From NCBI RefSeq assembly GCF_000244875.1, contig NC_016791.1, positions 4,531,001-4,595,000 of the forward strand: 64,000 nt of DNA. Direction: 5' to 3'. The stretch comes from Clostridium sp. BNL1100 (GTDB lineage: Bacteria; Bacillota; Clostridia; Acetivibrionales; DSM-1351). The notes beneath the pieces were generated by a model, which saw only the letters and a list, made by a program, of their open reading frames with translations, was not told the DNA's origin and made no database searches. Shown in pieces: positions 13,024-31,527 of the stretch. Both the position numbers and the translations under genes were made by a program. Within the stretch, counting starts at the first letter, position 1, and the number at the start of each line of letters is the position of its first letter.

Positions 13024-14049
13024 ATGAAAAAAGCTTTAATTACAGGAATAACAGGTCAGGATGGGTCATATCTGTCTGAGTTTTTATTAGATAAAGGGTA
13101 CGAAGTTCACGGAATCGCCAGAAGAAGCAGCAGCTTGAATACTCAAAGGATATCCCATCTTCTTGAGGATAAAACCGGAGAGAATTCACAAATTTCTCTC
13201 CATTTCGGAGATTTATCCGACTCCGGAAGTCTCAGTAAACTAATCTATAAGATAGAACCCGATGAAGTTTACAATCTGGGTGCCCAAAGTCATGTCAAAG
13301 TCTCATTTGACGTTCCCGAATACACTGGAGATGTTGATGCGTTGGGAACTGTAAGACTTTTGGAGAGTATCAGAGAAATTAACCCTCGCATCAAGTTTTA
13401 TCAGGCTTCCTCAAGCGAATTATTCGGTAAGGTAAGAGAAACTCCTCAAAGTGAGACTACTCCCTTCTATCCGAGAAGTCCATATGGCGTATCCAAAATG
13501 TATGCGTACTGGATTACAGTAAATTATCGTGAAGCATATGACCTTTTTGCCTGTAATGGAATACTTTTCAACCATGAGTCCCCCAGACGCGGAGAAACTT
13601 TCGTAACCCGTAAGATAACTAAAGGTATATCCGACATAGTAAATGGGAAAGTAGATAAACTTTATCTTGGCAACATTGACGCAAAAAGGGATTGGGGATT
13701 TGCGGGGGATTATGTAGAAGCAATGTGGCTCATACTTCAGCAGAATAAACCCGACGATTATGTTATAGCAACAGGGGAAACTCACACTGTAAGGGAATTC
13801 TGTAATCTTGCATTTAAACATGTAGGAATAACTTTGGAGTGGCACGGCTCTGGAGAGCAAGAAAAGGCTGTAGACAGTGCTACCGGGAAAGAGCTTATTA
13901 ATATCAGCAGTAAATTTTTCCGACCCACAGAGGTAGATTTGCTTTTGGGTGATCCGTCTAAAGCCAAAAGCCAACTAAATTGGAAACAGAAAGTTTCTTT
14001 TGAGGAACTTGTTAAAATGATGGTTGAAAGTGATTTAATGGGGAGATGA
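13024..14049 (+). CDS. gmd: GDP-mannose 4,6-dehydratase
   Basis: 341 residues of the extended short-chain dehydrogenase family. The Rossmann motif [16 protein letters not shown] lies at the N-terminus. The catalytic YxxxK appears as YGVSKMYAY (about residue 156), and the substrate-region segment [17 protein letters not shown] is specific to Gmd. It makes GDP-4-keto-6-deoxymannose from GDP-mannose, the first step to GDP-L-fucose (also to GDP-rhamnose or GDP-perosamine). AAAAGGAG precedes ATG 13024. fcl follows after 4 bases, so GDP-fucose is the expected product. manC for the GDP-mannose precursor lies at 25 kb in the facing operon. Confidence 0.96.
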
Positions 14050-14053
14050 AATA

Positions 14054-14986
14054 ATGAATAAGGAAAGTAAAATCTATGTAGCCGGGCACAATGGTATGGT
14101 TGGTTCTGCAATAGTAAGGAGACTTCAAAAGAACGGGTATGAAAATATTTTATGTAAAAGTCACAAAGAGCTTGACCTTACAGACCAGTCTTTAACGGAC
14201 CGCTTTTTTATGGATGAAAAACCAGATTATGTTTTTATTGCAGCTGCTAAGGTTGGCGGAATACATGCTAACAACTCCTTTCCTGCGGATTTTATAATGG
14301 AGAACATGCTTATAGAGTGCAATTTAATAAAAAGTGCTTTTAAATATGGAGTAAAAAAACTACTGTTTTTAGGCAGTTCATGTATATACCCTAAATTATG
14401 TCCTCAACCCATAAAGGAAGAATATCTTCTGACCGGTGAACTTGAGCCTACCAACGAAGCATACGCTCTTGCAAAAATATCAGGTATAAAAATGTGCCAA
14501 TCCTACAATAGGCAGTATGGTACACGGTTTATTTCTGCAATGCCTGCAAGCCTCTATGGCGTCAATGACAGGTTTGATATTAACAATTCTCATGTTATAC
14601 CTTCAATGATTATTAAGTTCCATGAGGCTAAAATTAATAACAAGCCATATGTTGAATTATGGGGCACCGGGAGCCCCCTAAGGGAATTTCTGTATGTTGA
14701 TGACATGGCAGATGCATGCTTGTATCTTATGCAAAATTATGAAGGAAACGAGTTTGTTAATATCGGCTCAGGCAAGGAGATCAGCATACGTGAGCTTGCC
14801 GAAACATTAAAACGAGTAACGGAATACACCGGAGAACTTGTTTTTGATACAACCAAACCCGATGGTACCCCCAGGCGTGTACTGGATAACACTAAGATAC
14901 ATAAGACAGGGTGGGTACCTCTGATAGATATGGAAGAAGGTCTTAGAAGAGAATATGAATATTACCTGAAATATGTCGTTATATAA
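14054..14986 (+). CDS. fcl: GDP-L-fucose synthase (GDP-4-keto-6-deoxymannose 3,5-epimerase/reductase)
   Basis: 310 residues, the standard size. It has the Rossmann motif [14 protein letters not shown], the catalytic region [16 protein letters not shown] with the Ser and Cys used for epimerisation, and YALAKISG carrying the YxxxK pair. It turns the Gmd product into GDP-L-fucose using NADPH. It starts 4 bases after gmd, so the two are translated together, and a strong bidirectional terminator follows at 15013. With four fucosyltransferase-like genes in the facing operon, the sugar nucleotide is probably used locally. Some databases name it wcaG. Confidence 0.95.
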
Positions 14987-15012
14987 AAATTATTCTTGTC
15001 CGCATTCTCGAT

Positions 15013-15053
15013 AAAAAATGAGGCAGTTTTAAATTAGAACTGCCTCATTTTTT
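15013..15053. terminator. Bidirectional terminator between fcl and the DivIVA-like gene
   Basis: A 16-bp perfect inverted repeat (AAAAAATGAGGCAGTT and its complement, 9-base loop) sits 26 bases after the fcl stop and 5 bases before the stop of the facing gene. A- and T-runs on both sides allow termination of both converging operons. Confidence 0.92.
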
Positions 15054-15057
15054 TATT

Positions 15058-15522
15058 CTACTCATTATTTTGTTCACTGAATAATTGCTTTAATACATCA
15101 AGTTGTGCACTTATCAACGCCTCAGATTTTGTTTTAAATGAGTACAATTGACCCTTAATTTCATCCAGCTTTCCTTTTGCTTTAATTACCTCAAGGTTGG
15201 CAATTTCAATTATTTTCTGGGCACTTACCTCTGCCTCATCAGTTATATTTTTTGCTTTCTCACATGCATTTGTTTTTATTTGTTCACTTGTATGCTGTGC
15301 AACTATTATGGAATGCTGTAATGATTCCTCAAGTATTTTATAGTGTTGAATGGTTTCATTAAGTAAATCTATTTTGCTTTTCATTTCCTCGTTTTCTTTA
15401 GCCATACTTATGTAGTCCTCACCCACTTGGGCAAGGATCGCATCAACCTGTTTTCTGCAATATCCGTTAACCAGGGACTTTTTTATGCAAAGACATTTAA
15501 AATCTTCGGGAGTATAATACAT
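15058..15522 (-). CDS. DivIVA-like coiled-coil protein
   Basis: 154 residues. The N-terminus (YTPEDFKCLCIKKSLVNGYCRKQVDAIL) resembles the membrane-curvature-binding head of DivIVA/GpsB proteins, and residues ~40-150 are a predicted long coiled coil with heptad-like Ile/Leu spacing and alternating charge. DivIVA proteins mark poles and septa and recruit partners. Being the last gene of the glycan block, it may localise the assembly machinery, but that is only inference. The ATG at 15522 is chosen because AGGAG stands 9 bases before it; the ATG at 15531 would abut the ribosome site. The similarity is partial, so the family call is moderate. Confidence 0.65.
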   Translation of the reverse strand: MYYTPEDFKCLCIKKSLVNGYCRKQVDAILAQVGEDYISMAKENEEMKSKIDLLNETIQHYKILEESLQHSIIVAQHTSEQIKTNACEKAKNITDEAEVSAQKIIEIANLEVIKAKGKLDEIKGQLYSFKTKSEALISAQLDVLKQLFSEQNNE

Positions 15523-15622
15523 ATCGCTCATCTCCTAAAATTACTCTCTCATCATAATATATTCCCATAACGGCAATATATTCTCTATTTGAGTAACCAT
15601 AGGGACGAAGAATATATATCTT

Positions 15623-16525
15623 TTACCACCTACAGCCTATGGGCATTATATCCCTTTCCCTGATATTGAACCTGAAGTTTGTAAAGTCTCTGGTTATAAT
15701 CATATCTGCAATGTCCTTAACCCACAGGATATCATTCAAAGTAACATAAAATCTTGCCCTGTCAACTAAGCTCTCCATGTTAGGATAATACCTTGCCACA
15801 CGTTTTAAAAAAGCTTCACCAAGATTATCAAGAAGTATTCCAACATCATAAGCAGGGTCGCCCAATCCCGAAAGTCCAAAACCTATTACACCGGTTAATT
15901 TTTTTAATCTACTGTCTATAAGCAGGTGACAAGCAGAAAGGTCTCCGTGTATAAGAGTAGGTTCGTAGGACAAAAAATCATCATCATTCTCAACAGGTTT
16001 AAATACTTGCTTTATATACTCCTTTGTATAATCGGAACAGTATGGAAATACCTTTCTGTATATTTCTTCAATAAGTTCCTTCCTTCCATTTTGTGCTATA
16101 GCGTTTTGGAATTCACCGATTCCCATATTTTCCGCATCTTCCACTGGTATGGTATGGAGTGTTTTAAGAAAACTGCCTATCTGCTGTGCCAAAGCCTCCT
16201 GATATTTACCATTCATTTGCAGTAGTAGGTTCCTGAATATCGGTTTTCCCTTTATTATATTGTATTTCACCATTTCTCTCCCAAGAGGTTCGTGAGCAGG
16301 AACAAGGGGTTCTATACGATTACGAATGAAATTAGTAACCTTGGCCTCGTTTTCCAGAAAAGCAACACTCCAGTCGTATCTGGCAAATTTGAAAATGTAA
16401 GTATCATTTATGATAATTACATCGTTATGTCTACCCTCATTCATCAGGTATTCCACTTTTGTTATATTAATCTGAGGGCATCTGCTTCTTATAAGCCCCA
16501 TATACATATTCTCTTTTTCATCCAT
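15623..16525 (-). CDS. Aminoglycoside-phosphotransferase-like kinase with altered metal site
   Basis: About 300 residues with an APH/choline-kinase fold. The N-lobe contains a nucleotide-binding strand pair (YIFKFARYDWSV, Lys as the ATP lysine). The catalytic loop is HGDLSACHLL (about 193-202), where His in place of the usual Asn also occurs in APH(2'')-like proteins. The metal-binding segment reads VIGFGLSGLGDPAYD (about 213-227), where the expected Asp of the I-D-F-G motif is Gly (codon GGT). This change should weaken Mg binding. ATG 16525 has GGTGGTGA upstream. It lies 37 bases after a fucosyltransferase-like gene, so its natural substrate is probably not a drug and may be a sugar or lipid of this locus. 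Activity is uncertain. Confidence 0.75.
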   Translation of the reverse strand: MDEKENMYMGLIRSRCPQINITKVEYLMNEGRHNDVIIINDTYIFKFARYDWSVAFLENEAKVTNFIRNRIEPLVPAHEPLGREMVKYNIIKGKPIFRNLLLQMNGKYQEALAQQIGSFLKTLHTIPVEDAENMGIGEFQNAIAQNGRKELIEEIYRKVFPYCSDYTKEYIKQVFKPVENDDDFLSYEPTLIHGDLSACHLLIDSRLKKLTGVIGFGLSGLGDPAYDVGILLDNLGEAFLKRVARYYPNMESLVDRARFYVTLNDILWVKDIADMIITRDFTNFRFNIRERDIMPIGCRW

Positions 16526-16562
16526 ACAGAATTTCACCACCCATTAGCTTTAAACCCTTTTA

Positions 16563-17522
16563 TCAATATAAAAGCTTTATATTCGATTCAGGCCAATCCC
16601 TTAACCTTAATACGGTATTTGAGAGACTTGAATATCCATTTCCAATAAAGAAATCACATTTTGAAGCTATATAAGTATCTTTAATTATTTCAATGGTGTC
16701 CTTTACAAGTTCAACTCCCTTGTGCCTTTTGTTTGGATAATTGAGCAGGGCAGTAGGAATACGTTCTTTGAGTGGCACCTTCTTACTGTCAGTATATATC
16801 AACATATCATTTTTGTTATATAACTTCTTGTATTGCTTAAATAAAGTATTAGAATCAGTTATTAAAAACAAGTGCCTTGTGTTGTACTTTACAATAAACT
16901 GCCATATATTGGGCTTGTAAAACTCATTCAGGTCATATAATTGAGCTACCTCGTTCACTATTGCCTTCTCTCTTACATGCACCCCTAAAATAGGCCTTTC
17001 ATCTCTGAAATCCGGATTTGTATTTACAAATTTTTGAATTTCTCTTTGTATTGGTGGCTGTAGCTTAATATAAGTGTCAAACATGTACCTGTATATCTGA
17101 TGCGGGGTTTTTCCGTATGACCAATGACCACTACTTACATATGGCAAAAGTGCTCTCAATGGATAATAGGTATCGCTTACAACCACGTTGGCTTCACTCC
17201 TCATCATACCGCTTAGTTCCCTATTTTCCATTTTAAATCTATCTGTATCTTCAGCCAGAACGTTTTCAAACTTCCATACCTTGGGATAATAAGAATACTC
17301 CGGGCGTACTACATCGTGGAAGGTATATTGGGTTATAGGCTCAAAAAATGATTCAAACGAATTTGTATTAACGGATTCACTGTAGAGGCTTTCCATTCCC
17401 CAGTATACTACCGGAATCCGGTTTGTCAGTTCGGCGGCAAACATCTGACATATCACATGGTCCACATCATTCCATATGCTGCCTCCCAGTGACTTTATCA
17501 GAAGAAATCTACTATTCGACAT
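16563..17522 (-). CDS. Fucosyltransferase-like protein, paralogue 1 (degenerate donor motif)
   Basis: 319 residues, clearly homologous along its length to the proteins at 17512-18573, 18563-19750 and 24322-25146. Shared marks are the start NSRFLLIKSLGGSIWNDVDH, the segment NRIPVVYWG, the strand LFLITDSN and the C-terminal CDFFIGNGYSSLSNTVLRLRDWP. The fold order resembles NodZ/FUT8-type fucosyltransferases (GT23 superfamily). However, the donor-binding motif that is HIRGGDK in paralogue 2 reads HVREKAI here, so GDP-fucose binding may be lost or changed. ATG 17522 is preferred over 17540 because it matches the other paralogues. It overlaps the upstream gene by 11 bases, so translation is coupled. 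Cytoplasmic; the activity is inferred. Confidence 0.72.
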   Translation of the reverse strand: MSNSRFLLIKSLGGSIWNDVDHVICQMFAAELTNRIPVVYWGMESLYSESVNTNSFESFFEPITQYTFHDVVRPEYSYYPKVWKFENVLAEDTDRFKMENRELSGMMRSEANVVVSDTYYPLRALLPYVSSGHWSYGKTPHQIYRYMFDTYIKLQPPIQREIQKFVNTNPDFRDERPILGVHVREKAIVNEVAQLYDLNEFYKPNIWQFIVKYNTRHLFLITDSNTLFKQYKKLYNKNDMLIYTDSKKVPLKERIPTALLNYPNKRHKGVELVKDTIEIIKDTYIASKCDFFIGNGYSSLSNTVLRLRDWPESNIKLLY

Positions 17523-18573
17523 ATGTGTTAACACCTCCATAAAATTCCGGGTACTCCAACCTGTGATTTTTGCTTTCCAGCAGCCTTCTGTTACCCTCTT
17601 CCTTTACTCTCCTTTTAGCAAGTTTTTTTTCATTTTTTAAATCTCTGTAAAAAAGAATAATGTTTGGTTCCGGCCAGTCCTTGAGCCTTTTTATTGTATA
17701 TGAAACATTGGAATAACCGTTTCCAATAAAGAAATCGCATTTCGCTCCAAGATAGGTGTCTTTTATAATTTCAATGCCCTTACGCCTTTTTGCTGAATAG
17801 TCCTGCAGGTGTGGTGCATCCTCAGTTGCACTTAATGCTCCCCTTCTGCATTCTGTGTAAACTACTTTGTCTCCATAAAGTCTTAAAAATTCTTTCAAAA
17901 TGTCTTCACAATCCGTGAGAAGTAGTATTTTCTCTATATCATATCTGGCACTGAAGTTTTCTATTTCCTTGTAGTATCGCTTGTTCAAGCGGCCAAGATT
18001 TTCAACTTCTCTCACTTTATCACCGCCCCTAATGTGGACAGACAGGGTTAGCCCCTTATCCTTCAGCTTTTCATCATAAAATTCTTGAATCTCCTGTTCA
18101 ATATCAGGCTTAAGCTTCAGATATTTATCAAACAAGGTTCGGTAAATCTGGTGCGCAGTCATACCGTAAGCCCAATGGTCCTTTGTTATAAAATTAATTA
18201 ACGGCCTTATAAAATAGTGGACATCACTGATCAGTACATTTGCATCACTAGTCATCATTTCACCCAGGTTCCGGTATGTCCATGTTACTTTATCCAAATC
18301 TTCAATCATTACATTGTCATAATTCCACACAGGAGGGAAATAAGTATAATTATATTTTATTACATCGTCTATATTATAGTTGGAGACCGGTTCAAAGTAG
18401 AGATCGAAGGCGTTTGTTTTGAAAGATTCTGCATATAAGCTATTTGGCCCCCAATATATAACAGGAATTCTGTCAGTAAGTTCAGCGGCCAGTAGCTGAC
18501 CCATTACATGATCCACATCCGACCAGAAGCCGCATCCCCATGACTTTATTAGCAAAAACCTGTCATTTGGCAT
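17512..18573 (-). CDS. Fucosyltransferase-like protein, paralogue 2 (intact donor motif)
   Basis: 353 residues, no signal peptide. N-terminal block NDRFLLIKSWGCGFWSDVDH, then a motif HIRGGDK at about 180-186, a strand LLLTDCED, and CDFFIGNGYSNVSYT near residue 300. The layout (HxR-x-x-DK, then a TD-containing strand, then a 'D-F-x-G/S-x-S' segment) matches NodZ and FUT8 alpha-1,6-fucosyltransferases, in which the first motif holds the GDP-fucose diphosphate. With gmd and fcl next door, a GDP-fucose donor is the best guess. A basic tail of ~40 residues follows the fold. It starts inside the end of paralogue 3 (11-base overlap). The acceptor is unknown. Confidence 0.75.
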   Translation of the reverse strand: MPNDRFLLIKSWGCGFWSDVDHVMGQLLAAELTDRIPVIYWGPNSLYAESFKTNAFDLYFEPVSNYNIDDVIKYNYTYFPPVWNYDNVMIEDLDKVTWTYRNLGEMMTSDANVLISDVHYFIRPLINFITKDHWAYGMTAHQIYRTLFDKYLKLKPDIEQEIQEFYDEKLKDKGLTLSVHIRGGDKVREVENLGRLNKRYYKEIENFSARYDIEKILLLTDCEDILKEFLRLYGDKVVYTECRRGALSATEDAPHLQDYSAKRRKGIEIIKDTYLGAKCDFFIGNGYSNVSYTIKRLKDWPEPNIILFYRDLKNEKKLAKRRVKEEGNRRLLESKNHRLEYPEFYGGVNTYVE

Positions 18574-19750
18574 TTAACTCACCTCTGTTCTCCTTATTCT
18601 TTTTGAACTTACTAAAAAACTTCTTAACCCTCTGTGCTGTACGAGTAAAAATATTGGGTTTATCGCTTTTTACCACAAGCATTACATTTACAGGGTACTT
18701 TCTCTTTTTAAACATCCAGTACATCATTTTTATGTTTTTATCTGCCCAATCCTTTATACGGGTAATGCCGTGGGATACATTTGAAAAGTCATTTCCTATG
18801 AAAAAGTCACATTTAGCAGCAATATATGCATCTTTTATAATTTCCATACCTCTGCGCCTTACCACCATTGGATTTTCCATATGATACACGGGTTCATCGT
18901 TTTTAATCCTTTTACAATTTGTATAGACAAGCATAGAGCCGTATATGTTCTTATACTCCTTCAGAGTATCTTCGCAATCCGTAAGTAGGAATATCTTCTT
19001 TATATTGTATTTATCTATATATTTTTTTATTTCCTTATGGTAGCCTCTGTTAGGCTCCTTAAACTTACCCTTTGCAAACAGCTTATATAACTTCTTTCCC
19101 TTTTTTTCAGGTTTCTGTTTATATTTTCTATAAATTTTATTCCAATACTGGTTTCCGTTTTTCTTAGAATCTCTGGTATCAAACACCATATCTTTTTCAA
19201 CCCTTCGGACGTGAACTGCAAGGATAGGATGGTTGTCTTTAAGCCATGAATTATAAAAACCCTGAACTTCCGTATTTATGTCTGATTTCAGCTTTATATA
19301 TTTATTAAATAAATATCGGTATATTTGTTGAGAACTCATTCCGTACGCCGGGTTATTCTTTTTTATAAATGGAATTAACTCATGTATGTTATAATAAACA
19401 TCTGCTACTACGACATTTTCTTGGCTGCTAAGTAAATCCCCGATATTTCGGTAAATCCAAGTATCTTTATTCTGATCTTCAATAAATAAGTTTTCATAAT
19501 CCCAGATTGGCGGGTAATATGTGTACTCGGGCTTTGCTACGTCAAAAATAGAGTAGTTGGAAACAGGTTCAAAGTACAATTCAAAGCCGTTGGTCAGGAT
19601 ATACCCATTGTGCAGACAATGTGTAGGCCAGTATACAACCGGAATCCTGTTGGTGAGTTCAGCTACAAGAAGTTGACCAAGCACATGATCTACATCCCCC
19701 CAAAGAATATAGCTCCAGCCTTTTATAAGCAGGAATCTGTCATTTGACAT
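18563..19750 (-). CDS. Fucosyltransferase-like protein, paralogue 3 (insertion and altered motif)
   Basis: 395 residues. The core matches the other paralogues (NDRFLLIKGWSYILWGDVDH; LLTDCEDTLKEYKN; CDFFIGNDFSNVSHGITR). The donor motif is changed to HVRRVEK, and a Lys-rich insertion of roughly 45 residues (KKNGNQYWNKIYRKYKQKPEKKG region) follows it. The C-terminus is also basic (RVKKFFSKFKKNKENRG). The positive tail and insert could bind a phospholipid or anionic polymer. ATG 19750 has GAGGTGAT upstream and matches the paralogue start. A terminator-like hairpin at 19820-19869 separates it from the subtilase gene, so it may have its own promoter. Function is inferred from the paralogues. Confidence 0.72.
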   Translation of the reverse strand: MSNDRFLLIKGWSYILWGDVDHVLGQLLVAELTNRIPVVYWPTHCLHNGYILTNGFELYFEPVSNYSIFDVAKPEYTYYPPIWDYENLFIEDQNKDTWIYRNIGDLLSSQENVVVADVYYNIHELIPFIKKNNPAYGMSSQQIYRYLFNKYIKLKSDINTEVQGFYNSWLKDNHPILAVHVRRVEKDMVFDTRDSKKNGNQYWNKIYRKYKQKPEKKGKKLYKLFAKGKFKEPNRGYHKEIKKYIDKYNIKKIFLLTDCEDTLKEYKNIYGSMLVYTNCKRIKNDEPVYHMENPMVVRRRGMEIIKDAYIAAKCDFFIGNDFSNVSHGITRIKDWADKNIKMMYWMFKKRKYPVNVMLVVKSDKPNIFTRTAQRVKKFFSKFKKNKENRGELNAK

Positions 19751-19819
19751 TTTTATTATCACCTCAATATAAATGCATTTCATGTTATTTTATGTAAGCC
19801 TATACCGATATGTGATTAT

Positions 19820-19869
19820 AAAAAATAAAAAGGGGTTGTCGCCAAAACAGAAATTTTTTGTTTTGCAAC
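19820..19869 (-). terminator. Terminator after the subtilase gene
   Basis: On the minus strand GTTGCAAAAC and GTTTTGGCGACAAC pair imperfectly, with four unpaired bases, followed by CCCCTTTTTATTTTTTAT. It begins 16 bases after the stop of the S8 gene and splits the glycan block into two transcription units, or lowers expression of the distal paralogues. Confidence 0.65.
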
Positions 19870-19884
19870 AATTGTTTACAGACA

Positions 19885-21072
19885 TTACTTCTCTTCTTTT
19901 TCAAACAACTCCAGTATGTAAGAATACAAATTTTCTAATTGATTATCATCGAAATGGTTGAAAACACGAATCCCATAGGAACTCTTTACTTCTACATCTA
20001 AAATATTATATACACATATTTCAATGTCAGAGTCCAACTCCATTATTCCTTTCATTAACATAATGTCACTTTTCTGATTGTCATATGAAAGAAGCAATAT
20101 ATCAGGGACAAGTATATTGAATATGTTATAGAAGCTCTTTTTTAAGGAGGGCAACTGTTGATTGGAGAATTGTCTGATATTTATGTAACCGTTACAAATA
20201 TCGGGCTCTTTTATATTCTCATATACACATAAAGCATTAAAACCGTCACTCCTGAATTTGCCGGTGAGCCCTTTTTCAAAATTATCGAGACTATTATTGT
20301 TAACTAAAATAACAGGTATATCCGGCTCTTTACAATTTCCAAAGGAATGAATACACTCTGTGTAGTTCTTTCTGTTAGCCTCCTGTTGTAATTTATCTAT
20401 AATTTCACCAAAACCTATATTGGGGTTTTTCCTCAAAAGATTAAATACATGAGCGGTAACCATTGGTGCCGCATAGCTGTTACATTCATTTGTCACTATA
20501 TCCGTTCCATCATACTTTTTCAGGGTGTGTTTTGCACATGCAGATATATTTATCCCGTCCATGGAATCAAAATTATATGTATACTCGCCCTCATTTAATA
20601 CTTCTATAAAGTCATATCTTACGCCAATTACCCTTTCAAAAGATGCCGGACATGTAAAAATATTACGATTGTTGCATGCCGCAACTACAATTACATTTTT
20701 CTCAAACGCATAATCTACGGCTTCCTTTACTTCATTAAAATCTCTGTAATCTATTGTACCCAGACTCAAATTTACAATACGTATACTGTTATCGGCACAC
20801 CATTTCAATGCACGGATAAGCTGTGCTTTCATTCCTGTTCTTGAGCTTGAATCCAATATTTTTATACTGCTTAAAACAGCTTCCGGAGAGTACTTTTTTA
20901 TTATTGCAGCACAGGTTGTACCATGAGACGGCAAAAAAGGGTCATAGTCCACCCTTTCACAAACAGTTAAATCATGAGTTATTTCCAGATTGTACGAAAG
21001 TCTGTCCGTTTGATAGTGCTTCTCGTTAACCCCGTCATCTATGACTGCTATATTAATAGGTAATGTATTCAT
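19885..21072 (-). CDS. Subtilisin-like (S8) serine protease without export signal
   Basis: 395 residues. The catalytic triad is visible: Asp in VIDDGV (about residue 12), His in SHGTTCA (residue 50) and Ser in NECNSYAAPMVTA (about residue 199). The oxyanion Asn lies in AACNNRN (about 134). The catalytic domain starts right at the N-terminus, so there is no signal peptide and no propeptide. Residues ~240-395 form an extra alpha/beta domain I do not recognise (IPVILVNNNSLDNF...). Cytoplasmic subtilases of this kind often process peptides or protein partners, but no precursor peptide is evident nearby. It sits 84 bases after the sugar epimerase in the glycan block. AGGAGGG lies upstream of ATG 21072 at a long spacing. 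Confidence 0.85.
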   Translation of the reverse strand: MNTLPINIAVIDDGVNEKHYQTDRLSYNLEITHDLTVCERVDYDPFLPSHGTTCAAIIKKYSPEAVLSSIKILDSSSRTGMKAQLIRALKWCADNSIRIVNLSLGTIDYRDFNEVKEAVDYAFEKNVIVVAACNNRNIFTCPASFERVIGVRYDFIEVLNEGEYTYNFDSMDGINISACAKHTLKKYDGTDIVTNECNSYAAPMVTAHVFNLLRKNPNIGFGEIIDKLQQEANRKNYTECIHSFGNCKEPDIPVILVNNNSLDNFEKGLTGKFRSDGFNALCVYENIKEPDICNGYINIRQFSNQQLPSLKKSFYNIFNILVPDILLLSYDNQKSDIMLMKGIMELDSDIEICVYNILDVEVKSSYGIRVFNHFDDNQLENLYSYILELFEKEEK

Positions 21073-21156
21073 CTTTAGTCTGGTACCCTCCTGCCCTGAT
21101 AGCCTGTATATTAATTACCAGTTATTCAAATAAATTACATATAATATATCATTCAA

Positions 21157-22227
21157 TTATTTCATTTGCAAATTCCACTTATCTTTATTCCATTCAACAG
21201 TTCTTACAAGCCCTTCCCTTAATGGCTTAAAGCATGTTAGCCCAAATTCGGAACAAATCTTACTTATATCAAGTTGAACCTTGTCAGGAGAAACCTTTAT
21301 TTCTTCAATAGCCTGTTTTTTCTGTCGATTGTCAATGGTGAGAGTACTTCCGGTAACAGAACAAACTTCTTGGGCAAGTGTCTTTATACTGATACTGTCC
21401 CGGCCTCCCACGTTATACACAAAATCCTTTCCATACGCCATTATGTTCATGAGCATCAAGGCACAATCTGCTATATAGCAGAAAGTCCTTATTTTGCTTC
21501 CGTCATCCAGCATGGTAATATTCTTTTGTTCCAACGCCCGTCTTATAAACTGCCCAAGAACACGTTCATCGTCTCCCTTTACTCCCGGCCCGTAAGTCAT
21601 AGATATTCTTGCCACTTTCGCTTCTACCCCTTCATAATGCCTGTAAGCAAAACACAGAGTTTCTCCCATCCTTTTTGACTCTGAATATACAGCTCTTACA
21701 TTTACCGGAGAACAAAAACCTGGATAGCTCTCCGGTGTAGGTATATTATCAATATCCGGCTCGCCGTAAATCTCAGAGGAGCTCAGGAATAATAAAACCG
21801 CGCTGTCCTTTTTAGCCTTCTGAAGCAGCTTTTCAGTAACAACAGTGTTTAAGTGAATGGTATCCAGGTAGTTTCTAAGGAATTTGCCGGGCTGTGCGTA
21901 AGTTGCACCATGTATGATATAGTCAGCCTTCAATTTGAGCTTGTCAAAATCCATATTGTTAAGGTCTTCGGAATAGAAACTGTAATTTTGCTCAAATATA
22001 TCAGCCAATGCCTTACAAGGCTTACTTCTGCTTACAGCATGAATTTTAATTTCACCGTCCTTTAAAAGGTTGGCAAGATGAAGCATATATATGATATAAG
22101 TTCCTATTAATCCGTTAGCACCTGTAATCAGTACAGTTTTGTTATAAAGAGGAGACAAGTCTATTTTTTCTAAATATTCCATGCAATCTTCTTTTATATA
22201 TTTATCCAAAAGGAGGCCCCCTTTCAT
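21157..22227 (-). CDS. NAD-dependent sugar-nucleotide epimerase/dehydratase
   Basis: 356 residues of the extended SDR family. It has the Rossmann motif TGANGLIGTYII (about 34-45), the catalytic Ser in LSSSEIYG, YSESKRMGE with the YxxxK pair, and ARISMTYGPG. Overall layout recalls UDP-glucuronate decarboxylase and dTDP-glucose dehydratase relatives, but the exact substrate cannot be read. ATG 22227 overlaps the stop of the E1 beta gene (TAATG); a TTG at 22209 with GGGGG upstream is an alternative start that would lose 6 residues. Tight coupling to E1 beta suggests the TPP enzyme and this epimerase act on one sugar intermediate. Cytoplasmic. Confidence 0.85.
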   Translation of the reverse strand: MKGGLLLDKYIKEDCMEYLEKIDLSPLYNKTVLITGANGLIGTYIIYMLHLANLLKDGEIKIHAVSRSKPCKALADIFEQNYSFYSEDLNNMDFDKLKLKADYIIHGATYAQPGKFLRNYLDTIHLNTVVTEKLLQKAKKDSAVLLFLSSSEIYGEPDIDNIPTPESYPGFCSPVNVRAVYSESKRMGETLCFAYRHYEGVEAKVARISMTYGPGVKGDDERVLGQFIRRALEQKNITMLDDGSKIRTFCYIADCALMLMNIMAYGKDFVYNVGGRDSISIKTLAQEVCSVTGSTLTIDNRQKKQAIEEIKVSPDKVQLDISKICSEFGLTCFKPLREGLVRTVEWNKDKWNLQMK

Positions 22228-23267
22228 TATTTCATTAATTCAACGGCCTTTGTGCATATAGTTTCAAAGTCAGGATAAAAGGCTTTCTCCTGCAAATCTC
22301 CGGCCGGGGTTGGTATATCCGGACAGCAAACTCTTACAACAGGCTTTTTCAGCAGATGAACAGCTTTTTCAGCAACGAGGGCTGCAATTTCTGCGGCAAC
22401 ACCGCCTGTCTTCCACCCTGTATCTGTTATTATAAGTTTGCCTGTCTTTGCAAGGGATTCAAATATAATGTCTTCGTCTATTGGTTTTATTGTCCTTAAA
22501 TCTATAACCTCAGCCGATATATTCTGGGCTTGAAGCTTCTCTGCTGCCTTTAAGGCTTCAACCAGCATATAGGATACTGCAACAATAGTAACATCCTTTC
22601 CCTTTCTTCTTACAATACCCTTCCCAAACGGTATGGAATACAGTGTGTCCGGGACATTCCCCATTGTTTTGTAAAGCCATCTGTGTTCAACAAATAGTAC
22701 AGGATTATTATCAATTATGCTTGAAATCAGCAATCCCTTGGCATCATAAGGCGTGGCAGGAGCAGCTATTTTCAGTCCGGGAGCATTCATAAGCATCCCC
22801 TGCAAACATTGTGAATGTTGGGCTCCCGATCCCCATCCTCTTGCACTCACTGTTCTCACTACTAAAGGTACACTAACCTTTCCTCCGGTCATATAGCTCC
22901 ATTTTGCAGCGTGGTTTACCAGTTGATCCAATGAAAGCAGCAAAAAATCCATTCTGCTATGAACAAAAACAGGTCTTAATCCTGCCATTGCGGCTCCTGC
23001 TGCTATTCCTGTCAGGGAATTTTCTGCGATTGGCGTGTCAAAAACCCTGTCACGGCCATACTTTTCGTGCAATCCTTTCGTAGTTCCAAAAACCCCGCCG
23101 GGGTCATCTACACCCTCTCCCATAACAAAGACTCTTGGGTCTCTTGCAAGGGATTGGTCCATTGCTTCGTACAAAGCATCCTTATATGAAATCATTCTGC
23201 CATTTTGGGAATCATCCGTTATTATAAATTTATCCTGTTTCTCAACTTCAATTGTAGTCCAGGGCAT
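22227..23267 (-). CDS. TPP-dependent dehydrogenase E1 component, beta subunit homologue
   Basis: 346 residues. Matches the pyruvate/acetoin/branched-chain ketoacid dehydrogenase E1 beta fold: YKDALYEAMDQSLARDPRVFVMGEGV, then DTPIAENSLTGIAAGAAMAG with the conserved Glu that activates the thiamine ring, and the C-terminal transketolase domain. About 25 residues precede the usual family start. GGAGG stands 8 bases before ATG 23267. The alpha subunit gene is directly upstream. No E2 acyltransferase or E3 gene is nearby, and the neighbours are sugar enzymes. The pair may therefore carry out a ketoacid decarboxylation with transfer to a sugar, rather than feeding acyl-CoA. That role is an inference. 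Confidence 0.87.
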   Translation of the reverse strand: MPWTTIEVEKQDKFIITDDSQNGRMISYKDALYEAMDQSLARDPRVFVMGEGVDDPGGVFGTTKGLHEKYGRDRVFDTPIAENSLTGIAAGAAMAGLRPVFVHSRMDFLLLSLDQLVNHAAKWSYMTGGKVSVPLVVRTVSARGWGSGAQHSQCLQGMLMNAPGLKIAAPATPYDAKGLLISSIIDNNPVLFVEHRWLYKTMGNVPDTLYSIPFGKGIVRRKGKDVTIVAVSYMLVEALKAAEKLQAQNISAEVIDLRTIKPIDEDIIFESLAKTGKLIITDTGWKTGGVAAEIAALVAEKAVHLLKKPVVRVCCPDIPTPAGDLQEKAFYPDFETICTKAVELMK

Positions 23268-23306
23268 ATAAACTACCTCCTATCAGTATACATAAATGAA
23301 ACTGCA

Positions 23307-24272
23307 TTAATCTGCATAAACAAAATCAAGTAATTCTTCAGGCTGCGGTTTAGGTGAATTAACTGCGAATTCAAAAGCATCCTTTACCACCTTATCTATT
23401 TCTTCATGGATGGATTTCTCTAGCGTCTCGGTAAGAATATTTCTGCTTTTAAGATAGTCTTTATACCATTTTATCGGGCACTTTGAAACCCAGTAATCGT
23501 ACTCCTCCTGGGGCCTGTATCCAACACCCAGGTCATCAACAGTGCCGATATGGCCCTTCCATCTATAGCTAATACACTCCAGTAAAACAGGCCCCTCTCC
23601 TTTTCTGCACCTTTCAACGGCTTTTTCTGCGTACTCGGAAACTTTAAGCACATCATTCCCTTCTATCTGATATGCGGGAATTCCATACCCCTGAGCAATT
23701 TTATAAATATTGTCTCCTGACTGCCGTTCCTTTTGTTGTGAGTTTATAGCATAGAAATTATTTTCGCATACATATATAACCGGGAGTTTTTTAAGGGATG
23801 CAAAATTCAGGCTTTCATGAAAAGTTCCTTCATCTGCCGCTCCATCCCCGAAAAAAACAGCAGTAACCCTGTCATTTTTTTGAATCTTGGATGCCAGAGC
23901 GGTTCCCGTTCCAAGGGGCAAGCTTCCTCCCACTATGGCAGTGGAGCCGAATATTCCTATATCCGGAGCCATCAGATGCATGGAGCCCCCTCTACCGGAA
24001 GTACACCCTGTTTTACGAAGATATAATTCAGCTATCATTTGCTTAATATCTCCACCTTTTGCAATATACTGTGCGTGACTCCTATGGGTTCCAAAAAGGT
24101 AATCCTCCTTACGGAGATGTATACAAACCCCTGCCGCAATTGCCTCCTGCCCTATGGAAAGATGAATAGGGGTTTTCATTTCGTCATTTTTATATTCATC
24201 CTCGATTTTGCGTTCCACACTGCGTATGGTCTGCATAATTTTGTACAGCTCAATAAGTCTCTCATTTTCCAT
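23307..24272 (-). CDS. TPP-dependent dehydrogenase E1 component, alpha subunit homologue
   Basis: 321 residues from ATG 24272, which has GGAGG nine bases upstream; an in-frame ATG at 24305 lacks a ribosome site. The thiamine-diphosphate motif runs from GDGAADEGTFHESLNFASLKK to CENN (about residues 155-185). SIGQEAIAAGVCIHL and RSHAQYIAKGG are typical of acetoin/pyruvate E1 alpha. It forms a heterotetramer with the beta subunit encoded 39 bases downstream. The pair sits between a fucosyltransferase-like gene and a sugar epimerase, so a role in making an unusual (for example two-carbon-branched) sugar is worth considering. Ordinary acetoin dehydrogenase is less likely without E2/E3. Confidence 0.87.
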   Translation of the reverse strand: MENERLIELYKIMQTIRSVERKIEDEYKNDEMKTPIHLSIGQEAIAAGVCIHLRKEDYLFGTHRSHAQYIAKGGDIKQMIAELYLRKTGCTSGRGGSMHLMAPDIGIFGSTAIVGGSLPLGTGTALASKIQKNDRVTAVFFGDGAADEGTFHESLNFASLKKLPVIYVCENNFYAINSQQKERQSGDNIYKIAQGYGIPAYQIEGNDVLKVSEYAEKAVERCRKGEGPVLLECISYRWKGHIGTVDDLGVGYRPQEEYDYWVSKCPIKWYKDYLKSRNILTETLEKSIHEEIDKVVKDAFEFAVNSPKPQPEELLDFVYAD

Positions 24273-24321
24273 ATATATCAGCCTCCGAAATTCCCAATAA
24301 TACACGTTTTCAATAACCAGC

Positions 24322-25146
24322 TCAAAAAAGCAGTGTTACATTCTGGTTCTGCCAGTCTTTTAGTTCGCATACTGCTCTGGATACGTTTGAGAATCCATTT
24401 CCTATAAAATAGTCGCATTTTGCTGCAAGCCATGTGTCTTTTATAATCTCAATTCCTTTCAGCTTGTTGTTAACATATTCCTGGAAGTGAACTCCCCCTC
24501 CATTTTTCAAAACCCTTTTACAGTTGGTGTAAATTAACCTTTCGCCGTAAATGTTTTTATAATCCGACAATATGTCTTTACAATCGGTCATAAGAAAAAT
24601 GAAGGCATCCGGCCTTTCTTTCAAATAAATGCTTATTTTCGCCGGATAAAGTTTATTCAGTTCATGCAGATGACTAACTTCCAATATCTTGTCACTTCCT
24701 CTTATATGTACTGCAATAATATCTTTACCTGCCATATTTACGTCGTAGAAATTATTTATCTCTTTTTCAACTTCCGGCCGCAGCTGTATATATTTTTCAA
24801 GCATAATCCTATAAATTTCTACGGAATTTAATCCAAAATACGGACATCTCTCATCCATACGGCATATAATACCATCCATATCCGTATATCTGTTCGCTAT
24901 CTCTATGTCCCCATTATGACTAATATTTTCTATTAATTCATCCATGCCATATTTTGATACAGGGAAAAAATATTGTTCAAAAGCGTTTGAAGCTTCATCT
25001 GTGCTGTACATACTCTTGCTTCCCCAATAAATAACAGGAATCCTTTGTGTAATCTCTGCAAGCAAAAGATGAGAAAGCGTATGATGCATGTCATACCAAA
25101 ATCCATCTCCTGTTGTATTGATAAGTAAGAATTTATCCTGCTTCAA
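24322..25146 (-). CDS. Fucosyltransferase-like protein, paralogue 4 (intact donor motif)
   Basis: 274 residues, the shortest of the four paralogues, lacking their basic tails. It starts KQDKFLLINTTGDGFWYDMHH, has RIPVIYWGSKS, the donor motif HIRGSDK (about 147-153), FLMTDCKDIL and CDYFIGNGFSNVSRA. The middle region before the motif differs most, which may set acceptor choice. The start is TTG 25146, 7 bases after GGAGGG; a GTG at 25161 is in frame but lies inside that ribosome site. It is placed between manC and the E1 genes, away from the other three, and probably comes from an old duplication. GDP-fucose use is inferred. Confidence 0.73.
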   Translation of the reverse strand: MKQDKFLLINTTGDGFWYDMHHTLSHLLLAEITQRIPVIYWGSKSMYSTDEASNAFEQYFFPVSKYGMDELIENISHNGDIEIANRYTDMDGIICRMDERCPYFGLNSVEIYRIMLEKYIQLRPEVEKEINNFYDVNMAGKDIIAVHIRGSDKILEVSHLHELNKLYPAKISIYLKERPDAFIFLMTDCKDILSDYKNIYGERLIYTNCKRVLKNGGGVHFQEYVNNKLKGIEIIKDTWLAAKCDYFIGNGFSNVSRAVCELKDWQNQNVTLLF

Positions 25147-25172
25147 TTTAAAACCCTCCACATACCAGGCTG

Positions 25173-26246
25173 TTACAAAAAATTATCGTATCCATTCTTT
25201 TTAATTATTTCAACCAGGCCTTTGACTTCCTGCGCTCTTCCTCTGGGACAAACAATAACGGCCTCATTTGTGCCCGCAACTATCATATTGTCCAGGCCTA
25301 TTACTGCAATAAGTATTCCATCAGCATAAATTACTGAATCGGTAGTTTCCAGAGCTATATAGTCGCCCTTCCAAGAGTTACTGTCCTTATCTTTTTGCAG
25401 AGTTCCCGACAATGTATCAATACTCCCTATATCATCCCAGTCGAAGGAAGCCCTTATTACACAAATATCTTTGCTTTTTTCAAGTACAGCATTGTCAAAT
25501 GAAATATCCTGTATTTCATTATATGCATTATCAATATATGTGTTAAAATTTTCACTCCCTTCATGTATAATTGCATTTGTGATTGATATAAAGTATTGGG
25601 GAATATTTTGTTTAATTTGATTAATTATTGTCTTTGATTTTCCTGCCAAAATACCTCCGTTCCACAAGTAATCACCTGATTCAAGCATTGTTCGGGCTGT
25701 CTCTTCGTTTGGTTTTTCAGTAAATCTGATAACTTTAAGAATTTGTTCTTCTGAGCCTGCCTCCTTATCTATTTTTATATATCCATAGGCAGTAGAGGGA
25801 TATGAGGGGTTAATTCCTATTACAACAAGACTATCCTTTTCCTCCGCCGCCCTAAACGCAAGATTTATTGTTTCAGTATAACCCTGCTGATCTTTAACAT
25901 ATCCGTCAGCCGGTACAAAACACAGTACTGCTTCTCCCAGTTTTTTATCAAGAAGCATTGCTGTATATGCAATACATGCAGCAGTGTTCTTCTTCTGGGG
26001 CTCTGAAATTATATTTGAATGTGGAATTATGTCCTTGACAACTTCTTTGGTCAATTCTACAAGACTTTGATTTGTTACAATAAAGCAATTGGATGGTGGA
26101 ATGCTCCGGCATACACGGTTAATTGTCTGAACCAGCATACATTCGCCGTCATCAACAGATATAAACTGCTTAGGCTTTTTTTCTTTTGACAGCGGCCATA
26201 GTCTTGTTCCTGAGCCTCCTGCCATAATAACGACAAATTTTTCCAT
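25173..26246 (-). CDS. manC: Mannose-1-phosphate guanylyltransferase
   Basis: 357 residues. The nucleotidyltransferase signature AGGSGTRLWPLSKEKKPKQF lies at the N-terminus, with FVPADGYV as the metal-site region and FTEKPNEETA as the sugar-binding segment. The C-terminal isomerase domain of bifunctional enzymes is absent, so this is the short GDP-forming type. It makes GDP-mannose from GTP and mannose 1-phosphate, the substrate for Gmd at 13 kb. It is the first gene of the leftward glycan operon; a TATAAT-like -10 lies upstream but no clear -35. GGAG precedes ATG 26246. The paralogue 4 gene follows after 26 bases. Confidence 0.94.
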   Translation of the reverse strand: MEKFVVIMAGGSGTRLWPLSKEKKPKQFISVDDGECMLVQTINRVCRSIPPSNCFIVTNQSLVELTKEVVKDIIPHSNIISEPQKKNTAACIAYTAMLLDKKLGEAVLCFVPADGYVKDQQGYTETINLAFRAAEEKDSLVVIGINPSYPSTAYGYIKIDKEAGSEEQILKVIRFTEKPNEETARTMLESGDYLWNGGILAGKSKTIINQIKQNIPQYFISITNAIIHEGSENFNTYIDNAYNEIQDISFDNAVLEKSKDICVIRASFDWDDIGSIDTLSGTLQKDKDSNSWKGDYIALETTDSVIYADGILIAVIGLDNMIVAGTNEAVIVCPRGRAQEVKGLVEIIKKNGYDNFL

Positions 26247-26380
26247 CTTTATATCTCCAAAAATGTTATTATAATCTATTTTATGTAAATTACCTTGGAT
26301 ATGTTCATACGTATTTCTATATAAGCTTCAGGACATAATACAATTTACATAGAAAATTCTATATATATGGGACGGCATAC

Positions 26381-26722
26381 ATGCAGGGTAAATATATATT
26401 ATTAGCAATTTTAAATTCAGGACTTACTGTGTTCGGACAGACACTGTGGAAAATTGGGCTTGAAAGAATGGAGGGCTACAGTTTAAGGCTTCTGCTGAAC
26501 CCACTAATACTTGCTGGGGTTTTTGTCTACGGTGTCTCTACGGTTTTGTGGTTATATGTACTTTCCAAGCTACCGTTTTCAACTGCATACCCCCTCAATA
26601 GCGTAGCTTATGCACTAAGCCTCTTCGTTGGATTTTTTATTTTTAAGGAGAATATCGACCTCCGTAAAATTTTTGGTACTATACTCATTCTGGCAGGAGT
26701 ATTTTATATAGCCAGAGGGTAA
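26381..26722 (+). CDS. EamA/SMR-like small membrane protein
   Basis: 113 residues with four predicted membrane helices, the size of a half-transporter of the drug/metabolite transporter superfamily. The last segment GFFIFKENIDLRKIFGTILILAGVFYIARG matches the final EamA/EmrE repeat. Such half-size proteins next to a GT2 glycosyltransferase often resemble ArnE/ArnF, which flip undecaprenyl-phosphate sugars across the membrane. It diverges from manC with a 134-base gap and is followed after 37 bases by the GT2 gene. The ribosome site is weak, so the start is less certain. The flippase role is inferred from context. Confidence 0.8.
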   Translation: MQGKYILLAILNSGLTVFGQTLWKIGLERMEGYSLRLLLNPLILAGVFVYGVSTVLWLYVLSKLPFSTAYPLNSVAYALSLFVGFFIFKENIDLRKIFGTILILAGVFYIARG

Positions 26723-26759
26723 AATAAATTTGGCATGAATACCGGCTTCGGAGGAATAA

Positions 26760-27470
26760 ATGAAAAGTATAATAATAATACCTGCTTACAATGAACAGGA
26801 TAATATTCTTGATGTCATAAATGATATAGAGCAAAATGCCTCAGGGTATCATTACATGGTTATAAATGACGGGTCAGCGGACAAAACAGGTTTAATATTG
26901 CGTGAAAATCACATTCCACATATTAATCTTCCTTTTAACATAGGTATAGGCGGAGCTGTACAAACCGGCTATAAATACGCATTTGAAAAAGGCTACGATA
27001 TAGTTGTACAGTTTGACGGCGACGGCCAGCACAAGGCATCTTTTATCCCTGAAATGATTAATATTCTGGAAGAAGGAAACTCAGACATGGTTATTGGCTC
27101 CAGATTTTTGGATAAAAGGGGCTACCAGTCTACCTTTATCAGAAGGTTGGGTATAAAGTACTTTCGTTTTTTGATATGGCTATTATCAGGGTCGGGAGTG
27201 ACGGACTCAACTTCCGGCTTCAGAGCCTGCAACAGAAAAATTATTGAACTGTTTTCAAAAAACTACCCTCAGGACTATCCCGAGCCTGAATCTATAATGA
27301 TTTTAAAACAAAAAAAATTAAAAATAACTGAAGTACCTGTAGAAATGAAGAAAAGGGCCCGGGGAAATTCTTCAATAAACAGGTCTCTCTCCGTTTACTA
27401 TATGGTCAAGGTTACATTGGCTATAATTTTAAGCCGCATGAGACCTCGTATAAGACGGTTTTCCAATTAA
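26760..27470 (+). CDS. GT2 family glycosyltransferase (polyprenyl-phosphate sugar synthase-like)
   Basis: 236 residues. The GT-A nucleotide-sugar fold starts at once (IIIIPAYNEQDNI). The metal-binding DGSAD and FDGDGQH (a DxD-type motif) are present, with SGFRACNRK further on. There are no C-terminal membrane helices, as in soluble or peripheral dolichyl-phosphate-mannose-synthase-like enzymes. It likely moves a sugar from a nucleotide donor to undecaprenyl phosphate. GGAGGAATAA precedes ATG 26760. It forms a three-gene rightward unit with the EamA-like and DUF2304 genes, a combination common in surface-glycan tailoring. Confidence 0.88.
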   Translation: MKSIIIIPAYNEQDNILDVINDIEQNASGYHYMVINDGSADKTGLILRENHIPHINLPFNIGIGGAVQTGYKYAFEKGYDIVVQFDGDGQHKASFIPEMINILEEGNSDMVIGSRFLDKRGYQSTFIRRLGIKYFRFLIWLLSGSGVTDSTSGFRACNRKIIELFSKNYPQDYPEPESIMILKQKKLKITEVPVEMKKRARGNSSINRSLSVYYMVKVTLAIILSRMRPRIRRFSN

Positions 27471-27493
27471 ATTTTCTTACGGAAGGTAAAAAT

Positions 27494-27838
27494 ATGAACT
27501 TACGGTTACAGATAAGTATTCTTCTTATAGGTTTTATTTTACTTACATCAATACTCAAAATGGTTCAGAAAACAAAGTTGGAACTCAAGTACAGTATTCT
27601 TTGGATTGTATCCTCTATAATGTTTATAATTATTGCTGCTTTCCCTGTCATCCCTGATTGGTTTGCAAACCTTATAGGTATAATCGAACCTGCAAATGCA
27701 GTATTTCTGGTACTTATTCTATTTGAGCTGGGTATAAATCTTAACCTTACCATAACCATTTCCAAACAGACCAACAAGGTTAAAAATATGGCACAGTACA
27801 TTGCCCTAATGGAGAACCAAAACCGTGAAAAAAGTTGA
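27494..27838 (+). CDS. DUF2304 family membrane protein
   Basis: 114 residues with three hydrophobic segments (residues ~5-25, 35-50 and 65-85) and a charged C-terminal helix of about 25 residues. The KLELKYSILWIV segment and overall plan fit DUF2304, a family nearly always encoded beside GT2 glycosyltransferases and presumed to anchor or assist them. It lies 23 bases after the GT2 gene and has a GGAAGG ribosome site. The biochemical role is not known for the family. Its stop overlaps the probable promoter of the leuS leader. Confidence 0.85.
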   Translation: MNLRLQISILLIGFILLTSILKMVQKTKLELKYSILWIVSSIMFIIIAAFPVIPDWFANLIGIIEPANAVFLVLILFELGINLNLTITISKQTNKVKNMAQYIALMENQNREKS

Positions 27839-31497: not shown

Positions 31498-31527
31498 CTT
31501 AAAATAATCTTAACCTGTAAAAAATTT

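What the first reader, a model, noticed from the sequence alone, without database searches (positions are those of the whole stretch)
13024..27838. Surface-glycan locus with its own GDP-fucose supply and four fucosyltransferase-like paralogues
Seen: manC, gmd and fcl give a full route from mannose 1-phosphate to GDP-L-fucose, and four homologous genes (16563-19750 and 24322-25146) have a NodZ/FUT8-like order of motifs, two with HIRGxDK. Known: this motif binds GDP-fucose in GT23-superfamily enzymes. Inference: the locus adds several fucoses to one surface glycan or protein. Four paralogues in one bacterial block, together with a subtilase, an E1 pair and an APH-like kinase, is not a layout I know.
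Basis: partly seen in the sequence, partly recalled or inferred. Interest (0 to 1): 0.8.

Follow-up and report, generated by a model that had tools for sequence, protein, structure and literature searches.

The report
Likely spore-coat fucosylation gene cluster
A conserved bacterial gene cluster makes its own supply of the sugar fucose and carries four related fucose-transferase-like proteins; its control signals suggest that it decorates the outside of spores, though the sugar has not been measured.

The parts
12935..12962 (+). weaker sigma-K-like promoter upstream of gmd, AC-N17-CATATTATG
   Evidence: aligned in the window and 4 close relatives; departs from the recalled consensus at the last base, and strict matches at this gene are only 5 of 25 genomes
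13024..14049 (+). gmd, GDP-mannose 4,6-dehydratase
   Evidence: PF16363 512 bits; in 20 of 20 untruncated clostridial loci
14054..14986 (+). fcl, GDP-L-fucose synthase-like
   Evidence: PF01370 224 bits; in 20 of 20; name by homology and position, no specific family model run on it
15058..15531 (-). DivIVA-domain protein, locus-specific paralogue
   Evidence: PF05103 127 bits; in 20 of 20; one of 3 DivIVA-domain genes in the genome and not the best-scoring one
15623..16540 (-). APH-fold protein, changed at the second metal-binding Asp
   Evidence: PF01636 81 bits; motif table; in 17 of 20 loci
16563..17540 (-). FtD, fucosyltransferase-family paralogue without the DK of the motif
17512..18573 (-). 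FtC, fucosyltransferase-fold paralogue with intact HIRGGDK; most likely the catalytic subunit
18563..19750 (-). FtB, fucosyltransferase-fold paralogue with an eroded motif and a low-confidence insert after it
19786..19813 (-). sigma-K-type promoter of FtB, AC-N17-CATAAAATA
19885..21072 (-). S8 subtilase; accessory, found only in Ruminiclostridium loci
   Evidence: PF00082 55 bits; in 7 of 20 loci
21157..22227 (-). extended SDR, nearest solved structures UDP-glucuronate decarboxylase
   Evidence: 2b69, 5.8e-40; 20 of 20 loci
22227..23267 (-). E1-beta, thiamine-diphosphate enzyme subunit
   Evidence: PF02779/PF02780; 19 of 20 loci
23307..24305 (-). E1-alpha, thiamine-diphosphate enzyme subunit
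   Evidence: PF00676 269 bits; 19 of 20 loci
24322..25161 (-). FtA, fucosyltransferase-family paralogue with HIRGSDK
   Evidence: FUT8_N_cat 35.6 bits; in 15 of 20 loci; D 17 of 18, K 18 of 18
25173..26246 (-). manC, mannose-1-phosphate guanylyltransferase
   Evidence: PF00483, PF22640; TIGR01479 291 bits, below its cut-off of 373; 20 of 20
26277..26304 (-). sigma-K-type promoter of manC, AC-N17-CATAAAATA

Best explanation
The locus is a late-sporulation, mother-cell glycosylation module. ManC, Gmd and Fcl make GDP-L-fucose. FtC, and FtA where present, transfer fucose (or a related GDP-sugar) from it. FtB and FtD keep the family fold but have lost parts of the donor-motif site, so they most likely act as obligate partners of FtC in a hetero-complex, or use a changed donor or acceptor. 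[quoted passage not shown] The DivIVA-domain protein and the changed APH-fold protein are probably scaffold or assembly factors. All this happens in the mother-cell cytoplasm, directly on a protein or soluble acceptor, and the product is laid on the forespore as coat or exosporium; hence no flippase or polymerase. Shown here: gene content, conservation, fold (FtC, FtB), residue losses, promoter geometry, no E2 found. Inferred: expression in the mother cell, acceptor, fucose on spores, branched sugar, complex formation.
For: Promoters: AC-N16-18-CATANNNTA lies within 200 bases upstream of manC in 22 of 24 and of FtB in 19 of 27 deduplicated clostridial loci, against 0.52 and 0.40 expected in dinucleotide shuffles; 0 hits upstream of E1a, E1b, SDR, FtA, FtC, FtD, APH, DivIVA, fcl or the flanking leuS, GH43, tadA, ALS and EmrE genes; the spacing is sharp (38 hits at 17, at most 8 at any other spacing from 10 to 24). 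All 3 Paenibacillus loci have AC-N17-CATATAC[AT]T 60-64 bases before gmd, the first gene of their cluster. dpaA, which I recall as sigma-K-dependent, carries the strict motif in this genome. The sps operon for B. subtilis spore-coat polysaccharide is read from a sigma-K promoter (PMC517825, passages). No transporter, polymerase or lipid-carrier family in the core. Fold. Residues. No E2 found in the genome, control rings in 10 of 14. SDR nearest UXS1; the same pairing is proposed for eurekanate (PMC10338323, passages).
Against: No expression, acceptor or sugar data for this locus were found. The sigma-K consensus with N17 is recalled; the passage seen in PMC517825 gives a gap of 14-16 between a 5-base and a 10-base element. 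One of the 22 manC sites (L011) lies 194 bases upstream and may be chance. gmd has a strict match in only 5 of 25 genomes, and yabG, a second control, had none. The manC and FtB sites also read as weak sigma-70 sites, 9 of 12. Genomes are related, so the counts are not independent. The locus is sporadic: 18 of 58 genomes of the order, 11 of 391 drawn from the class, so it is no universal coat component. A relative of FtC occurs in a cyanobacterium, not a spore former (L028).
Confidence: 0.6

Rival explanations
1. One reading: a vegetative cell-surface glycan or glycoprotein (S-layer, cellulosome or capsule) carrying several fucoses, made by four active fucosyltransferases.
For: Full GDP-fucose route and four paralogues of the right family; an SMR-GT2-DUF2304 trio, which I recall as typical of lipid-linked sugar transfer, lies next door.
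Against: Sigma-K-type promoters; no flippase, polymerase or lipid-carrier transferase in the conserved core, and GT2 and DUF2304 are in 4 of 20 loci; FtB and FtD lack motif residues; Paenibacillus and Lachnotalea have the core and, to my knowledge, no cellulosome.
Confidence: 0.15
2. Flagellin glycosylation: another cytoplasmic, flippase-free protein glycosylation.
For: No membrane-protein family among the core genes; the layout would also suit a cytoplasmic acceptor.
Against: No flagellar gene recognised in the locus (Pfam); promoters are of sigma-K type. Flagellin genes elsewhere in the genome were not examined.
Confidence: 0.07
3. All four paralogues are active but use different acceptors or donors; FtB and FtD moved to another GDP-sugar, such as one made from the Gmd 4-keto intermediate.
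For: FtB keeps the fold; FtB and FtD keep most core residues (T220, S288, S291, R35 in all, D272 in all but one FtB); FtD has its own conserved motif and keeps the E in 30 of 30.
Against: FtB lost the E in 30 of 30 and the Arg in 7 of 30; FtD lost D and K in 30 of 30 and the Arg in 7 of 30.
Confidence: 0.35
4. The E1 pair is a leftover of a pyruvate or acetoin dehydrogenase complex without a role in the glycan.
For: Sequence is plain E1-alpha/beta of the pyruvate dehydrogenase type.
Against: No E2 found in the genome; kept at 67-97% identity in the locus in 19 of 20 untruncated clostridial loci, the window counted.
Confidence: 0.1

Closest known systems
NodZ and FUT8 (CAZy GT23)
   Different: About 24% and 18% identity over the structural alignment; three to four paralogues in one locus, two without the motif; no Nod-factor or N-glycan setting
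POFUT1/POFUT2 (GT65/GT68)
   Different: More distant than GT23; no secretory pathway (general knowledge)
Bacillus subtilis sps operon (spore-coat polysaccharide)
   Same: Mother-cell glycan operon with a sigma-K-type promoter (PMC517825 passages)
   Different: Here built on GDP-fucose and GT23-like enzymes; homology to sps genes was not tested
EvdS6 with EvdU5/EvdS3 (everninomicin); AviB1/AviB2, Pau11/Pau12
   Same: E1-alpha/beta-like pair, here with no E2 in the genome, in the same locus as an NDP-sugar SDR; EvdS6 is likewise a glucuronic-acid decarboxylase
   Different: There in antibiotic clusters; here with GDP-fucose genes under sporulation-type promoters; activity untested; no direct sequence comparison with these proteins was made

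Membership tests
GT23 / GT-B fucosyltransferase superfamily | Fold of NodZ/FUT8 | tested here: met
GT23 / GT-B fucosyltransferase superfamily | HxRxxDK GDP-fucose motif in FtC and FtA | tested here: met
   D and K in 29 of 29 FtC proteins; FtA D in 17 of 18, K in 18 of 18. Role of the motif is recalled.
GT23 / GT-B fucosyltransferase superfamily | HxRxxDK GDP-fucose motif in FtB and FtD | tested here: not met
   FtD: D in 0 of 30, K in 0 of 30, Arg in 23 of 30. FtB: D in 6 of 30, K in 8 of 30, Arg in 23 of 30.
GT23 / GT-B fucosyltransferase superfamily | Transfer of fucose from GDP-fucose | not testable with these tools
   Needs enzyme assay.
Pyruvate/acetoin dehydrogenase complex | E2 acyltransferase in the genome | tested here: not met
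   PF00198: 0 matches in the own genome; control rings in 10 of 14 genomes.
AviB1/AviB2-type two-carbon branching enzymes | E1-alpha/beta-like pair encoded next to a 4-keto-sugar-forming SDR | tested here: met
   E1a, E1b and SDR adjacent in the window; SDR nearest UXS1. That the SDR forms a keto sugar is inferred.
AviB1/AviB2-type two-carbon branching enzymes | Acetyl transfer from pyruvate to a keto sugar | not testable with these tools
   In the passages read, the step is likewise a proposal for Avi, Pau and Evd.
Sigma-K regulon | AC-N17-CATANNNTA promoter | tested here: met
   manC 22 of 24, FtB 19 of 27 with spacer 16-18; 20 and 18 with exactly 17. Consensus recalled.
Sigma-K regulon | Transcription dependent on sigma-K | not testable with these tools
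   Needs RNA data from sporulating cells.
APH phosphotransferases | Second metal-binding Asp (I-D-F-G) | tested here: not met
   G in the window; D kept in 4 of 24 rows, which are two genomes listed twice each; aligned to 6ctz. Role of the residue recalled.
Surface polysaccharide (Wzx/Wzy or ABC) loci | Flippase, polymerase or exporter in the conserved locus | tested here: not met
   None among core genes by Pfam; hydropathy maximum below 1.5 for all core proteins but ManC, 1.87. Genes elsewhere in the genome not excluded.

The most novel reading that the evidence does not exclude
A bacterial hetero-oligomeric GT23-type glycosyltransferase in which one active subunit (FtC) works only with two anciently diverged pseudo-fucosyltransferases (FtB, FtD), used in the mother cell to build a spore-surface glycan of fucose plus a two-carbon-branched sugar: fucosylated spores by a system unrelated to sps or BclA glycosylation.
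Probability: 0.3. Interest if true: 0.78.

Novelty: new variant of a known kind. Interest (0 to 1): 0.62.

Why it matters
If right, FUT8/NodZ-type enzymes act in spore-surface decoration of anaerobic cellulose degraders and some Paenibacillus, with a built-in set of active and inactive paralogues that would let one test how pseudo-glycosyltransferases work. It also links two-carbon sugar branching, known from antibiotics, to a developmental glycan, and explains a layout that looked arbitrary.

Tried and rejected
FtA-E1a fusion in a relative: suggested by a 618-residue open frame, dropped because FtA and E1a are separate frames there (L007). Viral origin: a scan of viral contigs confirmed no relative. 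E1 pair as pyruvate dehydrogenase: rejected, no E2 found. APH-like gene as a drug-resistance gene: not supported, best solved relative only 95 bits and a metal-binding Asp changed. SMR-GT2-DUF2304 trio as part of the locus: rejected by conservation. Sigma-70 control: 58 sites against 55.7 expected in the region, no signal. Sigma-E control: spoIVA carries an ATA-N15-CATA site and no strict AC-N17 site; yabG at 275296 carries neither. dpaA and sigma-K were named from matches below NCBIfam's cut-offs.

Literature: full-text searches for fucosyltransferase+NodZ+clostridia+spore (0 papers), exosporium+fucose+spore+glycosyl (8 papers, listing only), cellulolyticum+sporulation+GDP-mannose+fucose (0), spore+glycosylation+fucose+Clostridium+mother cell (1 paper, listing only), GT23+NodZ+bacterial+fucosyltransferase (4, listing only). 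No listing showed such a locus; the listed papers were not opened, and subscription papers were not searched.

Counting limits. Loci were fetched because they encode an FtC-family protein, so FtC's own presence is by construction. L029 and L030, also clostridial but with outlying FtC relatives and no full locus, and L028 were left out of the clostridial counts; truncated loci (8 of 28) were left out of the 20-of-20 counts; the all-28 counts are. One search was not deduplicated (24 rows, 18 distinct). One search lost rows in start-codon extension (13 FtD, 11 FtA), so I repeated the motif count from pairwise matches over all genomes; for FtB the two alignments differ by a few cells (Arg 22 of 29 against 23 of 30), and the E position there lies beside an insert. 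The S8 gene was not in the statistics; it had no strict promoter match in 8 rows and a looser one in 2. The 'inactive' reading of FtB and FtD rests on recalled FUT8/NodZ residue roles plus alignment. In the fold lists no other glycosyltransferase family comes near; families not listed are not excluded.
Full report
Observation. The window (G000:C1:4531001-4595000 of a 4,613,747-base, one-contig genome) holds the genes at the stated places. The nearest named relative found is Ruminiclostridium papyrosolvens C7, with FtC 99% identical. I call the four paralogues, in order of transcription on the - strand, FtA (24322-25161), FtB (18563-19750), FtC (17512-18573) and FtD (16563-17540). FtB and FtC overlap by 11 bases and FtC and FtD by 29. 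Pfam places FtA in FUT8_N_cat and FtB in O-FucT above the curated cut-offs; FtC and FtD match NodZ, O-FucT or FUT8 below them. A search of the genome with FtC finds only these four genes.

Four groups. A tree of 54 proteins puts FtA, FtB and FtD each on one side of a well-supported branch, and FtC likewise at 85/76; Paenibacillus and Lachnotalea members fall inside the FtB, FtC and FtD groups, so the triplication is older than the spread of the locus. Residues differ by group. FtC: H, R, D, K and E in 29 of 29 proteins. FtA: R 18 of 18, D 17 of 18, K 18 of 18, E 18 of 18. FtD: D and K 0 of 30, Arg 23 of 30, E 30 of 30. FtB: Arg 23 of 30, D 6 of 30, K 8 of 30, E 0 of 30 (earlier, smaller count; table). 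T220, S288, S291 and R35 are fixed in all groups and D272 in all but one FtB. The four outlying relatives in L029 and L030 keep the D in 1 of 4. That the D, K and E positions matter in FUT8/NodZ is recalled, not tested. Old groups that keep the order FtB-FtC-FtD, overlapping genes in the window and two groups with eroded motifs suggest a fixed complex with one active member; this is inference.

Conservation. In the 20 whose locus is not cut by a contig end, manC, SDR, FtB, FtC, FtD, DivIVA, fcl and gmd are in 20, E1a and E1b in 19, APH-like in 17, FtA in 15, S8 in 7, EmrE-like in 6, GT2 and DUF2304 in 4 (orders). FtC is there by construction, as it was the bait. In two R. cellobioparum genomes the locus is split into two parts on one contig, ManC-FtA-E1a-E1b-SDR-S8 and FtB-C-D-APH-DivIVA with fcl-gmd. 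Paenibacillus has the minimal form gmd-fcl-manC-FtB-FtC-FtD in 3 of 3 loci. Distribution is sporadic: 11 of 11 in the genus, 18 of 58 in the order, 11 of 391 drawn from the class. No core protein belongs to a transporter, polymerase or lipid-carrier transferase family by Pfam; hydropathy maxima are below 1.5 for all core proteins except ManC, 1.87.

Promoters. Upstream of manC and FtB, close relatives share a block TTACATAAAATA. It fits AC-N17-CATANNNTA, the sigma-K consensus as I recall it. Strict matches (spacer 16-18) within 200 bases: manC 22 of 24 genomes, FtB 19 of 27, gmd 5 of 25; 0 for E1a, E1b, SDR, FtA, FtC, FtD, APH, DivIVA, fcl, leuS, GH43, tadA, ALS and EmrE; shuffles expect 0.52, 0.40 and 0.58 for the first three. 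Over manC and FtB together, 38 regions have a site with spacer 17; no other spacer from 10 to 24 has more than 8. The two manC misses are L055 and L070; one hit, in L011, lies 194 bases away and may be chance. Of the 8 FtB misses, 6 have a site that lacks only the final A, and the other two are Lachnotalea, where manC precedes FtB and carries the site, and Galacturonibacter, whose contig begins 501 bases before FtB. Paenibacillus loci, whose cluster begins with gmd, have AC-N17-CATATAC[AT]T at 60-64 bases in 3 of 3. Controls in this genome: dpaA has the motif, spoIVA has a sigma-E-like one, yabG has neither. A sigma-K-like gene is present, in pieces. PMC517825 (passages) reports that the B. 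subtilis sps operon for coat polysaccharides is read from a sigma-K promoter. Genomes are related, so these counts are not independent trials, but the spacer specificity and the zero counts at inner genes are hard to get by descent alone.

Accessory genes. No 2-oxoacid dehydrogenase E2 was found in the genome, so the E1 pair is unlikely to serve a normal complex. The SDR's nearest solved structures are UDP-glucuronate decarboxylase 1 (5.8e-40), and two NDP-sugar dehydrogenases that could supply UDP-glucuronate exist elsewhere. In everninomicin, EvdS6 (a glucuronate decarboxylase) releases UDP-4-keto-xylose and an E1-like pair EvdU5/EvdS3 is hypothesised to add an acetyl branch (PMC10338323, passages); AviB1/AviB2 and Pau11/Pau12 are proposed likewise (PMC4753412 and PMC4425429, passages). 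I therefore propose a two-carbon-branched sugar here; the nucleotide is open (UDP from the SDR, or GDP from the Gmd intermediate). The APH-like protein aligns to a gentamicin phosphotransferase at 95 bits but has G instead of the second metal-binding Asp; D is kept there in 4 of 24 rows, and the first Asp is changed in 7 of 24. It is probably not an active kinase in most of these genomes. The DivIVA-domain protein is one of 3 in the genome.

Verdict. The evidence moves it from 'several fucoses on a surface glycan' to 'spore-surface glycan made in the mother cell by one or two active GT23-like enzymes with two diverged partners, plus a branched-sugar branch'. It is a new variant of a known kind (mother-cell spore glycosylation), with mechanism and sugar untested.

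Noticed in passing
G000:C1:2863155-2870734 (L102), outside the window: spoIVA is split at profile position about 405/399 in 6 of 11 genomes of the genus (five gaps of about 5.4-6.3 kb, one of about 39 kb) and whole in 5 of 11. In the window's genome the insert holds a 550-residue serine-recombinase-like protein, a dockerin-like/galactanase-like protein, a GHKL-like kinase and an AgrB-like protein (my reading of the ORFs, no family search). Looks like a skin-type element in spoIVA; one full-text search listed only a C. difficile skin paper..
   Followed up: partly
G000:C1:1666094-1678770 (L097), outside the window: sigK matches lie in three pieces, as if interrupted twice; each gap (about 6.6 and 5.4 kb) has its own large serine-recombinase-like ORF (567 and 523 residues), with cargo that looks like CO dehydrogenase plus an ABC transporter in one and a glycoside hydrolase plus an AraC-like regulator in the other (my reading of the ORFs)..
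   Followed up: partly
15058-15531: A DivIVA-domain protein is as constant in the locus as the fucosyltransferase-like genes (20 of 20) and stays linked after rearrangement; why a polar-scaffold domain belongs to a glycan locus is unexplained..
   Followed up: partly
19885-21072: S8 subtilase most like QhpE (below its cut-off) with a further C-terminal stretch of about 150 residues, found in 7 of 20 loci; possible processing protease for a coat protein or peptide..
   Followed up: no
L028:4100-12874: In the cyanobacterium Microseira wollei an FtC-like stretch (46% identical) lies inside a 2924-residue open frame next to other very long frames..
   Followed up: no
30697-32957: AgrB-like gene followed by a GHKL-type sensor kinase downstream of leuS: looks like an agr-type quorum-sensing pair..
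   Followed up: no
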